Below, piece by piece: positions 36,561-59,147 of a stretch of DNA of 64,000 nucleotides. Source of the DNA: Cliona cf. orientalis. Lineage: Eukaryota; Porifera; Demospongiae; Clionaida; Clionaidae. The DNA lies in contig OZ005705.1 of the NCBI GenBank assembly GCA_963930775.1, forward strand, positions 3,720,001-3,784,000, in the 5' to 3' direction. The stretch's first letter is position 1, and each line of letters begins with the position of its first letter. The position numbers and the translations under genes were made by a program. The notes beneath the pieces are model-generated. The model saw only the letters and a list, made by a program, of their open reading frames with translations, made no database searches and was not told the origin of the DNA.

Positions 36561-36903
36561 GTTGAGCTCCATAATGTGGTCGTTTTACTCTTCACAGTGG
36601 CTCAGAGTACAACTCCTTATAAACAACACTTCTACAGAGTGTTTTGCTTCCCTTTGAATTCTGCTGTCTTCAGTAGACAGCTGTAGTACACTTGTAGGCA
36701 TAAATGAATTAGTGGTTGCACTAAAACAACTCCATGCCTATGCCTTAAAACAACTAGTGTGTACATGCAGAACTGGCTTGGACCAGTTTTGAGCACCCGG
36801 TTTGGACCAGTTTAGGAGCTGGTAGACTACTGTCAAGTAGCTGTTTGTTGCGAGATTGAGACTCTACAGTGCTACACTGCGCCTGCCTGCCTGCCTATCA
36901 AAA

Positions 36904-38368
36904 ATGACTCAACAGCGGCCGGGACAGAATCCACAGCAGTATGGATATCCTCCTCAATCTGTCGTTGACTGGCGTTTTGTGGTGAATTCGGGACAGTATG
37001 TGGACTTGACATCACCTGTACATGTTCCTGCACCGGGACAACAGTGGGTTCATGGACAACCTCACGGAGCTCGAGGCACTAGCAGCAGCCACACTGTTGT
37101 AGCACCGCAAATGATGCAGGTATGCCCATGTATGCCGCACAGTGTTGTGTACAGTGTAGCTATCTATATGAAACTGTAAGATCATGACTGTGCTTGTACT
37201 TTTGTGTTACGTATGTGCACATGCTGTGATCGGGCTCGAGTTTGCCTACATAGAGCCGTACTGTGTACAGGTGTGCTGCTATCAATTTTGGTGACTGTAT
37301 GTGTATGTATGAGGAGCCATGTGCTGGTGTGCATTAATAGGAAAATCCGTGTGTGTGTGTGTGTGTGTGTATGCTTGGCCAGATATCTACGTATACAGTG
37401 TATCTATGCCCCTGATTAGCTTTACATGTACATACTTATATTTACAGAATCTGCCGCATAGATACGGCCTGCTTCAAACCGCACCCCAAATGCAGCATTC
37501 ACCAGTTATAGACTTGGATTCAGAACAGGGAGGAAAATCTGATCAAGAGTGTAGTGTGTCGTCAGATCCTAGTGAAAGTAGACCACAGCAAGTGCACCTT
37601 TCCTCCAAGTGCTTGGAATATTCAGTCAAAGTTGTACCACCCGACAGGAAGGCAGGTTATCAGATCCATAAACTACGCGCTTACACGGGAAAAAGATTTA
37701 TGAATGTTGAAGAGCTTAAATCACAACTACAGAAATCTCTCGATGAGCATATTTCAGATGAGAGTGCCATGAACTTTGGATATATTGAACCTAGCAAGCA
37801 AGGAGTACGTGGTAAGATGAGATGGATATTCACTGCTGATGATCTTAAGGATATGTACGCTGCATATGAGCAAAAAAACGCTAACTGAAGTTCTATTATG
37901 GTGTGATGGACGAAAAGTGGTAAAAGAAGATGATGTCCCACGGCCAAAACGTCCACATGTTGCTGCAGAAAACAGCTGCACCAAAAAAAGGTCACCTGTT
38001 GCAGTGTCTCAGGATAAGAAGCTTGGTGAGGTGCAGGAAATCTATGAGAAACTCAAATCAACACATACAAGCTATGATCAGGAGCGGTTGCGAATGAGGG
38101 CTCATTTAATACAGATGGGCAAGCATGAATCATACGAGATCCCACCAAACCAGCCATTCTTTAAGGATGCAAAGTCTCGGAAAAAAGACAAAACTACTGA
38201 AGGGCCAGCTGCTCAAGATGTATATCTCCTGGGAAGCGCTCTAACTTACGCAGTGCATACATGAGTCAAGTGAAGGAATGGCATGGTCTTTTTAAGGATG
38301 GAGCCATAACAGAAGAAGAGTATGAACAGCAGAAAGAAAAGATACTTGGTGATTTAGGAAAGCTTTGA
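36904..38368 (+). pseudogene. accessory gene carried inside the Tc1-type element
   Basis: Exon 1 (36904-37119) begins MTQQRPGQNPQQYGYPPQ and ends QMMQ at a GT. Exon 2 starts at 37448 after TTTACAG with phase 0. It contains an acidic Ser-rich stretch, then LEYSVKVVPPDRKAGYQIHK ... FMNVEELKSQLQKSL ... SAMNFGYIEP ... WIFTADDLKDMYAAYE, which looks like a small alpha/beta domain, perhaps beta-grasp/PB1-like (inference). The frame shifts at a 7-A run (37872-37878) into a Lys-rich segment (DVPRPKRPHVAAEN) and a helix (EVQEIYEKLKSTH). It shifts again near 38215-38240 into a C-terminal LFKDGAITEEEYEQQKEKIL, a SHOCT-like helical hairpin. Two shifts mean either a pseudogene or homopolymer sequence errors. 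I do not recognise the protein. Confidence 0.6.
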
Positions 38369-39139
38369 TTTATGGCAAGACAATACTATACATTATACTA
38401 TTGTTGTACAATAAGAATCTGACATGTATATACAATTATATACATAATAGTTATTCACACTTGGTAGCTGCAATGTTGTATCCATCCACGACAGTCCTCC
38501 TCAGTTACTGTATCAAATGCTGCTCTTACCAAAGGAGTTACATCATCCACAATTTGGACCAGCTCATCGTGTCTCCTCAGGTAATTCTTAACCTTACTGA
38601 AGGTGTGCTCGATAGGGTTCATATCTGGACTATATGGTGGTAAGAATAGGACTAGTATGCCTGCATCACGAAAGAGTTGTTCAACACAGTCCACATGATG
38701 TATTGAGCAGTTGTCCATGATGACAACTGACTTGGAATTCTGGCCATTAAACGGAAGGAGGTTTGGAATGAGTGATCCTCGAGCAAACTCATAGAAGAAT
38801 TCAGCATTCATTGAATTGTGGGTGAAATCTACAGCTACGACACCATCAACAGCGATAGCAGCAACAGATGAGAGCCTTCTTCCCTTCACTAGCTTCCGAT
38901 GGTACTCGGGTGTGATACCCCTCAGAGCGTAGCCAGCTTTGCGAATAGCACTTTTCTTATCGCACCCTGTTTCATCCACCCATACCAGTTGGTCCACTGA
39001 AAAGAAACTCATCTCTGCTCTGAATCTTGCCCGTAATTCAGTACACCTTTGCTGTGCAACCTGTCTGATCTTCTTCCTAGTAAAACCATGCTTTCTTAAA
39101 ATCCTACAGATGGTTGCATTAGACACTTCAACTCCAATA

Positions 39140-39977
39140 CAGTCGTTAGGCCAGCGGTCCAATTGTTGAAGTGCATCCGGTGGCACATTCCAGTGCATGC
39201 AATTTTTGCCGTTTTTTATCTATTTTTCTTACCTGTCCTATCTAGGCCATCCTTCACTTCTATGACTCCAAACAAAGACCAGAAGACAGAGGAACTCTTC
39301 TACTTTCTTCTCGTTCAGGTCCTATAACCCGGAGACATTCATGAGCTCCGCGGCGACCGCTTTTGTGCATGCTACTATCAAGCGCTCACAAAAAGTGCCT
39401 CGCGCAAAAAGTGGCACGTTTTGGTTCCCCTGGATAAATTCCCATGATTCAAGCACCATTCAATAGCTCTTGTGTTGCTCTACAATATAAGACTGGAACG
39501 AAGTTTTTCCATCGAGCGGTTCCAGAGTTACATACTGTTAAAAATAGTATAAAATTTTGTTATTTTATCATAGAAACATTGAATAAAATACGTATAAATC
39601 AATGACAGAACTTTCTAGGTGGTACAAAGATATTATGCAGCTATCAAAGGCCTTCTTGAAGATTTGTAGAAGGTTGTTAAAACTTTCACAACCAGTCTCC
39701 TATGCCATCATGACACACTGATAGCTACGGTTGACCAGAGTAAGCTTAAGTGCTCCAGCAGCCACAGGGGTGGTGCGAGGACCTAGACCGAGTAGCTAGC
39801 ACCTCAAAAGATAGCTTCAAAACAAAAGCTATACCTGAGGCCTAGGCAGCACCTTCTCTTTGGCAGTGGAACTCCATTGTTCCCCCTCTCACCATCTCGT
39901 ACTCATCAATAGCTGACCATCACCTAAGAGATTGTGCACGTGTATATACAAGGGGGGTAGGGGTGTGTGTAAGAGGT

Positions 39978-40017
<40 letters not shown>

Positions 40018-40780
40018 TGGGACCTGGGAAAACTGCTATCTTATTTAACTTTCATAAATGTGAACTTGTGCTTTTCAGCTTCATCGTCAGCTGATTTACA
40101 CAAATTATGGCATAGGTCTTTTGCCATTTCAGCTGGTAAGGCTCACCCTCATCCCTGGACTTCATTATTTGCTTGAAGATTTGAATATAGAAAGAAACTA
40201 ACCATTTGAATGATGATGTCTGCTCCCTAGGAAAATGGAGCTTCATATTGAGCACTCCCCTCCTTGGTATTTACTGGACAAAGCGTCAGACACTCGATAA
40301 AACTTTTAGAAGACATGGAGAATACCACGCGGTTGTACTGAAATTTTCCAATTTTTTGATGCCGTGTAACTCTGGAACCGCTCGATGGAAAAACTTCGTT
40401 CCAGTCTTATATTGTAGAGCAACAAAAGAGCTATTGAATGGTGCTTGAATCATGGGAATCCATCCAGGGGAACCAAAACGTGCCACTTTTTGCGCGAGGC
40501 ACTTTTTGTGAGCGCTTGAGAGTAGCATGCACAAAAGCGGTCGCCGCGGAGCTCATGAATGTCTCCGGGTTATAGGACTTGAACGAGCAGAAAGTAGAAG
40601 AGTTCCTCTGTCTTCTGGTCTTTGTTTGGAGTCCTAGAAGTGAAGAATGGCCTAGATAGGACAGGTAAGAAAAATAGATAAAAAAACGGCAAAAATTGCA
40701 TGCACTGGAATGTGCCACCGGATGCACTTCCTGGATCTGCAACGTTTGTACTATTTTGGACCGCTGGCCTATTACGACTG
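39140..40780. mobile_element. 1641-bp long-inverted-repeat element inside the transposase
   Basis: Ends CAGTCGTTAGGCCAGCGGTC and inverted CAGTCGTAATAGGCCAGCGG, flanked by AATA at 39136-39139 and 40781-40784. The inverted repeats extend inward about 400 bases on each side (to about 39535 and 40365), with a 22-base gap in one arm. The middle has a GA microsatellite and no recognisable transposase. The 4-bp duplication is not that of Tc1/mariner; the superfamily is unassigned. Confidence 0.85.
39980..40012 (+). repeat. (GA)n microsatellite
   Basis: Uninterrupted AG dinucleotide tract in the centre of the long-inverted-repeat element. Confidence 0.9.
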
Positions 40781-41470
40781 AATAAGATCGTGAATGTGCT
40801 GTCGCATTTCAGAGATATACAACTGAGGTTGTTCCAAAATTAAGCCAGTTAGCAAAAGCTCTTCGTAGTCATCTAACTTTCTCTTGTTGTACCTTGGTGG
40901 CTGCTTTTTAGCACTGACTTCTCCTGTCAGCATGAATCTTGACCAGATGTTGTGAGTTGTTCCCACAGCTATATTCAAATTCTTGGCTATTTCACTAAAG
41001 GACAGCTCTCTAACCAATCTCTGCCAAATGACCCTCCATCGAATATCATCAGAATAGGCGGTAGTACGGCCTGGCTCGGCACTAAACGCATTAGCCATGG
41101 ATGAACGCTGTACTGAAATTTGAATTACGCGCTATTGCAAGAAGCACACCCACCTTTAAACCACGCTTCAAATTTGCGCATGCGCTTATGATTGTGTTGG
41201 CATGCCTGTGGGGCGCTAATTAATGTAGGGTGGTTACACATGTAGTACATGGTGGTTAGAATGTGATGAGGCTTCATTCAAAGGGAAGCAAAACACTCTG
41301 TATATGCATACACAAATAATGTGATACAATGATATAAATAGTCACACATGCCACATGTACAATGATAAGCATATCGAGTTAAAAAAACAAAGCTTATACT
41401 ATTGTCTGGCTGAGGAACAAGGTTAGCAGGTTACCCTATCCCTGACTCGAGATTGACGATAAGACTTAAG

Positions 41471-41504
41471 TCAATGTTGTTGAAATTTCAACAACATTGA
41501 CTTT
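41471..41504. repeat. perfect short hairpin
   Basis: AGTCAATGTTGTTGAAA is followed directly by its inverse. No T-run follows, so it is not a terminator. Just beyond it, 'gctaccctgcctgcttacac' recurs in altered form near 41653. Confidence 0.7.
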
Positions 41505-57452: not shown

Positions 57453-59147
57453 TGGTACCTCAACGGAACAACTAATTTTTGATCTAAATATTCGGACATA
57501 TTGCGCATGCGTATTGGCTTCAATCTGTAATACACATTAATTGATTTCGACCTAGTAAAGCTGATTGGAGCTAGCTTAAATTTCCTTCGCTAAGTCAAAG
57601 GACTTATCGCACATCAAAAGGTGCAAAACCCTGGACACGGCCAACTGCTGGTAATTGTATTGCTCCTGCTTGCCCAGCAAAGTATAGGGAGACTTACAAT
57701 GACGAGTCCATGAGATCAGCACTGACTGCTACAGAGAAGGGGTTGAGCATCCGTAGAGCAGCCAGCGAATACAACATACCAAAATCAACTCTTGGTGATA
57801 GGGTATCTGGGAAAATGCCATACTTAACTCCAAATGAAGAGGATGAGTTGGTGAAGTTTCTTCTAAATTGTGCAGCTATTGGCTATGGACGTAGCAGAAA
57901 GGAAGTTATTGCAATGGTTCAAGGGATTCTGGAGACATGAGGTTTAGACGGACCCCTTACCTGTGGGTGGTGGGATGGTTTTAATCAAGGCAAGATACCC
58001 TCAACTCAGTCTACGCCAAGCATCATTGCTGTCGTACTCACGTGCCGTTGCCAGCGACAGAGATGTCATTGACCGGTATTTTGATCTGCTTGAGGAGACA
58101 CTAGAAAAGAATAATCTTAATGATAAACCCGCCCAAATCTTTAATTGTGATGAAACTGGGATGCCACTCGATCCAAAAGCAAGCAAAATTATTTCACAAA
58201 GAGGGGATAAGAATCCAGCTGCTATTGGAGGTAATACCAAGACACATATCACGGTTTTAGCGTGTGTAAGTGCAAGTGGTAAATTAATGCTATGCCCCTG
58301 ATGGTAGTGTGGGGTCGCAAAGTATTGAATTATCAGCTGACCATTGGTCCAGGAGAAGTTCCTGGTACTTTCTATGGATTATCGGATAATGGCTGGACGA
58401 CAGCTGAACTCCTTGATCAGTGGTTTGCTCACCATTTTTTGTTGTATGCTCCATCAGCAAGACCACTCCTGTTGCTACTGGATAGACATTCATTTCACTT
58501 TTGTCCAGATTTCGTGAGAAAAGCAGCACAGGAAGATGTTATTGTTTTTACAATCCCACCAAATACGACTCACCTCACACAACCACTTGACAAAGGGTGT
58601 TTTGGACCCTTGAAGAATATAGGAAACGTCGTCACCCAATTTGATTTTTCTCAGCTCTTGAGTTCAGCCTGGCTTATGGCAATGTCTATGCCAAACGTGA
58701 TCAATGGTTTTCGCACAACTGGAATTTACCCGGTGGACAGGGATAAGATTCAACTTCCAGAGCAAAAGCTGACCCCTGATGATAACTCTGTTACCAAGAA
58801 CAGTAACTTGGCTTTTGTTCCACTTTTCAGTCCATCCCGCTCAAGGCATCCACGTCACTCCTTCATGCAAGAAGATACCATAACTACACCTATATCACCC
58901 TCCAAATCATCTTCAAATTCTAATATTGAACTAATTTAAAATCTTCTTGCCCCCCAAAAGTCCTTAGCACTTTCAAGGTTACTAAAGTGTCCTGATCCAC
59001 CCTCTAAGTTGCCAAAAAAATATCCGAATTCTTCTGCACGCGTACTGACAAGTTTAGAATGTTTGGCTGAACTAGAAAGGAAGAAGAAACTAAAAGAAGA
59101 TAAGGAGAAACAGAAAGAAGCAAGAAGATTAAAAAAGAGTACACACA

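What the first reader, a model, noticed from the sequence alone, without database searches (positions are those of the whole stretch)
36635..41300. A Tc1/mariner-type transposon that contains a second, spliced gene
Perfect 25-bp TIRs and a TA duplication enclose both a DD34E transposase and a convergent intron-bearing gene with 3' ends only 86 bp apart. Tc1/mariner elements are normally single-gene. The gene inside has a possible beta-grasp-like domain and a SHOCT-like tail. It could be an accessory factor, as the Myb-like protein is in Harbinger elements, or a captured host gene. This is the best candidate for an undescribed system in the window.
Basis: partly seen in the sequence, partly recalled or inferred. 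Interest (0 to 1): 0.85.

Follow-up and report, generated by a model that had tools for sequence, protein, structure and literature searches.

The report
Jumping DNA with conserved partner gene
A common kind of jumping DNA that normally carries a single gene turns out, in this eukaryotic genome, to carry a second gene at nearly every copy examined; selection has kept that second gene working, so it probably helps the DNA to spread.

Summary
The window element (36633-41302, perfect 27-bp TIRs including TA) has two more copies in the 217-Mb genome; 3 of 3 carry both genes, all broken; here a nested 1.64-kb insertion splits the transposase. Of 150 transposases found by homology 147, and of 150 picked by Pfam DDE_3 (an overlapping list) 143, have the second gene within 2.5 kb, nearest partner always convergent; 4 of 149 pogo-type hits do. 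Of 50 further regions opened, 50 hold both genes or pieces of them, convergent; in 29 both are whole. Eight of nine compared pairs are 98.7-99.8% identical two-gene units at separate sites. Second gene and transposase show similar purifying selection in six informative pairs; their trees correlate (Mantel r 0.89). The protein has a variable N-terminus, a possibly PB1-like domain, a conserved middle motif and a SHOCT tail. Most likely it is a dedicated accessory transposition factor (inferred). The only Tc1/mariner precedents found are ciliate TBE and Tec. Function, expression and host identity are untested.

The parts
36633..36659 (+). left terminal inverted repeat including the TA target duplication
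   Evidence: 27 nt, 100% complementary to 41276-41302; 6 genome hits = 3 elements
36904..37119 (+). second gene, exon 1 (variable Q/P/S-rich N-terminus)
   Evidence: open frame from ATG to GT, phase 0; splice sites the same in 3 of 3 copies
37120..37447 (+). predicted intron of the second gene
   Evidence: GT...AG in 3 of 3 copies; in 13 of 22 relatives exon 2 has no in-frame ATG before the domain, which suggests an upstream exon there too
37448..38368 (+). second gene, exon 2: PB1-like domain (about 37600-37900), linker, middle motif, SHOCT tail (about 38262-38368); two frame breaks in this copy
   Evidence: profile family A1; SHOCT PF09851 34.6 bits; breaks seen against the C1 and C3 copies
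38455..39139 (-). transposase, C-terminal part with the DDE catalytic domain
   Evidence: PF13358 E 1.9e-24
39140..40780 (.). nested 1641-bp element with long inverted arms, AATA on both sides, that splits the transposase
   Evidence: inverted arms 330 nt at 96%; absent from the C1 and C3 copies
40781..41098 (-). transposase, N-terminal part (HTH-like)
   Evidence: ORF 40772-41131; HTH_23 E 0.0068, below Pfam cut-off
41276..41302 (-). right terminal inverted repeat including TA

Best explanation
The element is a member of a large, diverse lineage of two-gene Tc1/mariner (DD34E, TA-inserting) transposons. One gene is a transposase without introns that should bind the TIRs and cut and paste at TA. 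The convergent, spliced second gene encodes a dedicated accessory protein that travels with the transposase. Shown: both genes lie inside the TIRs where both ends were seen, move as one unit, have largely shared their history and are both under purifying selection. Inferred: the protein acts in transposition itself, through a PB1-like interaction domain and a SHOCT hairpin that let it self-assemble or contact the transposase (helping nuclear entry, end synapsis or target choice). The window copy is a broken member of a three-copy family.
For: 3 of 3 TIR-matched copies hold both genes with unrelated flanks. 147 of 150 homologous and 143 of 150 DDE_3-picked transposases (overlapping lists) have the gene within 2.5 kb, nearest partner always convergent; random placement gave mean 1.6, maximum 6 of 150, with the 222 second-gene loci then known; DDE_1 hits gave 4 of 149. 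50 of 50 opened regions hold both genes or pieces of them, including 8 of 8 picked because one search had hit no second gene there. In the six pairs with second-gene dS 0.04-0.16, dN/dS is 0.07-0.29 for the second gene and 0.10-0.25 for the transposase. Mantel r 0.89, 0 of 9,999 permutations; 12 of 21 tree splits shared, permuted mean 0.16, maximum 3. Eight of nine compared pairs are 98.7-99.8% identical over the unit, the ninth 93.1%; 6 of 9 lie on different contigs.
Against: No experiment and no RNA. Correlated trees also follow from simple linkage and do not prove contact; 9 of 21 splits differ, among them 6 of the 15 well-supported second-gene splits and 3 of the 12 well-supported transposase splits that are not shared as well-supported ones. 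No DNA-binding domain was recognised in the second protein. The PB1 reading is weak (Pfam E 0.08-0.2 in 2 of 21; hhalign probability 42%, and only 2 of 21 members beat the best shuffled sequence). 86 of 257 second-gene loci had no transposase in the capped list; of four opened, three hold transposase pieces and the C11 fragment shows none. Three of the 150 homologous transposases had no gene hit; one of them, once opened, held gene fragments.
Confidence: 0.62

Rival explanations
1. The second protein does not act in the reaction but counters host silencing or drives transcription of the element, as transposon-encoded anti-silencing factors do in plants (recalled).
For: Shared inheritance and purifying selection are equally expected; a variable N-terminus and an interaction-type domain would suit a chromatin factor; no catalytic domain was matched.
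Against: No recognisable DNA-binding domain. No silencing data exist.
Confidence: 0.2
2. The second protein is a self-made brake (inhibitor or titrator of the transposase) that limits copy number.
For: Interaction-type domain architecture; convergent genes could also repress each other by antisense RNA, with only 39-216 bp (median 99) between the stop codons in the 29 elements whose genes are both whole.
Against: A brake would be expected to be lost from the most mobile copies (inference), yet many near-identical copies keep it whole.
Confidence: 0.1
3. A captured host gene carried as passive cargo.
For: It appears to have an intron while the transposase has none.
Against: Purifying selection, correlated trees and presence at nearly every listed transposase. 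No stand-alone host ancestor was seen, but 82 of 86 unpaired loci were not opened.
Confidence: 0.05
4. Chance neighbourhood or an assembly artefact.
For: None found.
Against: 50 of 50 convergent pairs, TA-TIRs around both genes, copies at separate sites, random expectation of 1-2 of 150.
Confidence: 0.01

Closest known systems
Ciliate TBE elements (Oxytricha; Tc1/mariner)
   Same: DD34E transposase plus further element-encoded proteins under purifying selection, proposed as accessory factors (PMC12242761, passages; PMC7325037, passages).
   Different: TBE has three ORFs; [quoted passage not shown] Here there is one extra, apparently spliced, convergent gene with a SHOCT tail; no zinc finger or kinase was matched. 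The sequences were not compared directly.
Ciliate Tec elements (recalled: of Euplotes)
   Same: Tc1/mariner transposase plus extra ORFs, one in complement (PMC7325037, passages).
   Different: TIRs of about 700 bp and a site-specific recombinase ORF (PMC7325037, passages); here 27-bp TIRs and no recombinase matched.
PIF/Harbinger two-gene elements
   Same: A transposase and a second element-encoded protein that is required for movement (recalled).
   Different: Different transposase superfamily (here DDE_3), TA rather than a 3-bp target (recalled for Harbinger), and no Myb/SANT match.
Canonical Tc1/mariner elements
   Same: DD34E, TA target, short TIRs, HTH-like N-terminus (weak match).
   Different: [quoted passage not shown]

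Membership tests
Tc1/mariner (IS630-Tc1-mariner) | DDE catalytic domain with DD34E spacing | tested here: met
   34 residues between second D and E in 47 of 47 scorable of 50 relatives; PF13358 in the window protein
Tc1/mariner (IS630-Tc1-mariner) | short TIRs and TA target duplication | tested here: met
   window family; TA-ended TIRs around both genes in 12 of 42 merged regions (one more) and 7 of 8 added loci; boundaries. Empty sites were not searched
Tc1/mariner (IS630-Tc1-mariner) | N-terminal helix-turn-helix DNA-binding region | tested here: inconclusive
   HTH_23 E 0.0068 and HTH_33 E 4.4e-5, both below Pfam cut-offs
Tc1/mariner (IS630-Tc1-mariner) | transposase as the only gene (typical rather than defining) | tested here: not met
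   50 of 50 opened regions carry a second gene or a piece of it
Ciliate TBE/Tec | zinc-finger/kinase protein or site-specific recombinase as extra ORF | tested here: not met
   Pfam on 17 relatives matched neither at E up to 1
Ciliate TBE/Tec | sequence homology of the accessory proteins | not tested
   TBE/Tec proteins were not fetched
PIF/Harbinger | Harbinger transposase and Myb-like partner | tested here: not met
   DDE_3 transposase; no Myb/SANT match
SHOCT domain (PF09851) | match over the Pfam gathering score at the C-terminus | tested here: met
   34.6 bits against 27 for the window tail; 12 of 17 relatives match at E up to 1, best 2.9e-7, the first one below the cut-off with 14.6 bits; how many of the 17 pass it was not shown
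PB1 domain (PF00564) | significant profile match or fold | tested here: inconclusive
   Pfam E 0.08-0.2 in 2 of 21; hhalign P 2.6e-4, probability 42%, controls 0.24-0.65; only 2 of 21 beat the best shuffle; no significant PDB sequence match; fold prediction never ran

The most novel reading that the evidence does not exclude
An undescribed, old and diverse lineage of obligately two-component Tc1/mariner transposons, in which a PB1-like/SHOCT scaffold protein is an essential partner of the transposase. It would be the first such system outside ciliates, and a possible source of domesticated host genes.
Probability: 0.45. Interest if true: 0.85.

Novelty: new variant of a known kind. Interest (0 to 1): 0.77.

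Why it matters
Tc1/mariner elements are the textbook one-gene transposons and are valued as tools because the transposase is thought to need no helper (recalled). A lineage that keeps a second gene at nearly every listed locus, under selection similar to that on the transposase, asks directly why a helper is needed and makes it testable: copies with both frames whole exist here. It would also widen the set of superfamilies with helper proteins, and gene models of this type in other eukaryotic genomes may turn out to be transposon proteins.

Tried and rejected
Prokaryote and virus relatives of the second protein: none confirmed in IMG/VR, GTDB genomes or phages. Database names: Pfam gave SHOCT only, apart from weak chance-level matches; NCBIfam showed nothing below E 0.016; PHROGs matches (best 1.6e-6, 3 of 17 members) are to families without a stated function and were not followed. 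PDB by sequence gave nothing convincing. Fold prediction was never accepted. A nuclear-localisation reading of the linker is weak (9 of 22 with 4 or more K/R in six residues; the linker was cut by a rough rule). Chance neighbourhood was rejected. The idea that transposases without a gene hit are single-gene outgroups was rejected where tested: 6 of 6 such loci in the first set and 8 of 8 picked for it hold a divergent second gene or a piece of it. Papers: searches listed none; others showed, by titles and starts of abstracts, no non-ciliate Tc1/mariner element with such a second gene. Passages were read in four papers. Repbase cannot be searched here, so it may be described there.
Full report
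What is in the window. The element runs from 36633 to 41302. Its ends are perfect 27-bp inverted repeats that include the TA duplication. On the plus strand lies a gene with exon 1 at 36904-37119, a predicted GT...AG intron at 37120-37447 and exon 2 at 37448-38368. On the minus strand lies a DDE_3 transposase that ends at 38455; 86 bp separate the two stop codons. The transposase frame is split by a nested 1641-bp element with long inverted arms at 39140-40780, with AATA on both sides. The second gene has two frame breaks in exon 2 when compared with the other copies.

The TIR family. The window lies in a 217-Mb genome of 149 contigs. It is not named; I suspect an early animal such as a sponge, but did not test this. 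The 27-mer occurs six times, which makes three elements; the reversed control gave none. The other two, at C1:24825969-24828936 and C3:8135270-8138674, have unrelated flanks and carry both genes; exon 2 is 97% and 91% identical to the window's. The splice sites are the same in all three. All three are broken in different ways: the C1 copy has deletions in the transposase N-terminus and a stop in the second gene; the C3 copy has its own nested insertion and many lesions. The second gene also occurs as rearranged, TIR-less fragments at C11:2796610-2797519, where the 3.9 kb held shows no match to the rest of the element.

The lineage. A 143-residue piece of the second protein matched 78 places in the genome, and the transposase matched 150, the best-scored part of 555 candidates. 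Of 75 merged second-gene loci, 57 lay convergent to a listed transposase (gap between matches 520-1158 bp), one in tandem, none divergent, and 17 had none listed. I then examined 50 regions outside the window family: 42 merged from 23 of the 30 loci and 28 of the 30 (the other nine belong to the window family or to C11), and 8 transposase loci chosen because one search had hit no second gene there. With profiles built from 17 second proteins and 15 transposases, 50 of 50 held both genes or pieces of them, and 50 of 50 were convergent. Some partners are only fragments, for example the transposase piece in L038. In 29 of 50 both genes are whole by profile coverage in one open frame (exon 1 not counted), with a median of 99 bp between the stop codons.

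The census. With four more second-gene queries, 147 of the 150 transposases and 143 of 150 picked with the Pfam DDE_3 model have a second gene within 2.5 kb, and the nearest one is convergent in every case. Before the last query, which came from the most divergent family, the first figure was 134 of 150. The two lists overlap and both are capped at 150. In the union of 179 transposase loci, 169 were convergent, 1 tandem and 9 without a hit. Random placement gave a mean of 1.6 and a maximum of 6 of 150 (with the 222 second-gene loci then known). As a control, 4 of 149 DDE_1 (pogo/Tigger) hits have a second gene near, against a random mean of 1.8 and maximum of 6 (one of 150 left out). Against the reading: 86 of 257 second-gene loci have no transposase in the capped list. 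Four of these were opened; three hold transposase pieces and the C11 fragments show none.

Ends and mobility. The TIR scan found TA-ended pairs around the genes in 12 of 42 merged regions (one more) and in 7 of the 8 added loci; several held regions stop inside an element, so absence there means little. The ends begin TACAG or TACTG in most cases (TACAC in L084), followed by a related motif. Of nine pairs compared, eight are 98.7-99.8% identical over the two-gene unit and one 93.1%; 6 of 9 pairs lie on different contigs. In most pairs the match stops at or within a few bases of TAC...GTA ends; in two pairs the edge of the held DNA cut the comparison, one pair is split by a GA repeat, and in the C3 pair that lies about 18 kb apart the match runs about 20 bp past one end. 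The spacing is 34 residues between the second D and E in 47 of 47 scorable of 50 transposases. Empty sites were not searched.

Selection and shared history. In the six pairs with second-gene dS of 0.04-0.16, dN/dS of the second gene was 0.17, 0.11, 0.10, 0.29, 0.07 and 0.15, and that of the transposase 0.11, 0.25, 0.17, 0.21, 0.10 and 0.11. Younger pairs have few changes and scatter (second gene up to 0.73, transposase up to 1.47). Between families second-gene dS is saturated in all listed pairs but one (dS 1.6, dN/dS 0.34), while the second proteins are 42-58% identical; pairs sharing few five-residue words were not compared. Trees of 24 families (of 41 long enough, thinned at 90% transposase identity) agree in good part: Mantel r 0.89 with 0 of 9,999 permutations as high; 12 of 21 splits shared against a permuted mean of 0.16 and maximum of 3. 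Nine splits differ. Of splits with support of 0.8 or more, 15 in the second-gene tree and 12 in the transposase tree, 9 are well supported in both, so some exchange or tree error is likely. The genes have largely travelled together; this follows from linkage plus retention and does not by itself prove that the proteins touch.

The second protein. It has a variable N-terminus; in 13 of 22 families there is no in-frame ATG before the conserved domain, which suggests a spliced upstream exon in them. Then come a domain with the pattern Y.VKI.NP.KKSE...GYIEPGHG.KGK.RWL..D.DL..MY...K.EI.LWC, a linker, a middle motif (QLR.WAH.I.MGKHSSYD.PPD.PFF), and a SHOCT tail. The first domain may be PB1-like: the match covers positions 34-81 of 84 in Pfam (E 0.2) and 60 columns, positions 23-83 of 86, in hhalign (P 2.6e-4, probability 42%; controls 0.24, 0.42 and 0.65, with PB1 sequences recalled from memory). 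A PB1 model built from them scored only 2 of 21 members above the best shuffled sequence. I regard this as suggestive only. PDB sequence searches gave no significant match and the fold job was never accepted.

Function. Selection on a transposon gene acts through the spread of the element. A gene kept at nearly all listed loci, whole in many recent copies and constrained about as much as the transposase, most likely helps the element spread. I favour an accessory factor of the transposition reaction (0.62), then an anti-silencing or transcription factor (0.2), then a brake (0.1). Steps shown: arrangement, joint movement, largely shared history, constraint. Steps inferred: protein contact; a role in nuclear entry, synapsis or targeting.

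What is known. Seen in passages only: PMC12242761 states that Oxytricha TBE elements encode two further proteins under purifying selection, proposed as accessory factors, and calls this surprising because Tc1/mariner elements typically encode only the transposase. PMC7325037 describes extra ORFs in TBE and Tec. PMC7386202 reports pogo elements with one or two ORFs encoding the transposase. Passages of PMC5753468 held nothing to the point. The searches, judged by titles and starts of abstracts, showed no comparable system outside ciliates. Repbase was not available, so prior description there cannot be excluded. I file the elements as Tc1/mariner by transposase, ends and target, in a new two-gene variant.

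Noticed in passing
window 39140-40780: Nested 1641-bp element with long inverted arms (330 nt at 96% plus 50 nt at 100%) and AATA on both sides; its coding capacity was not examined.
   Followed up: partly
window 58283-58939 (+): Fragment of a pogo/Tigger-type DDE_1 transposase (PF03184, E 3.1e-15).
   Followed up: no
L008 (C3:8134300-8139700): The C3 copy carries its own insertion of about 465 bp in the transposase, with TACAGTGGAACC near its start; another transposase of the lineage lies close by at C3:8133824-8134789.
   Followed up: no
C11:2796610-2797519 (L012, L013): Two rearranged second-gene fragments, 91-96% identical to the window family, without TIRs or transposase match in the 3.9 kb held.
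   Followed up: partly
C1:37209004, C1:37394201, C1:37463518 and other unpaired second-gene loci: Second-gene loci without a listed transposase; these three have equal scores and lie within 260 kb. They may be decayed elements, segmental copies or domesticated genes.
   Followed up: no
window 41468-41503: Perfect palindrome with 18-nt arms about 165 bp outside the right TIR.
   Followed up: no
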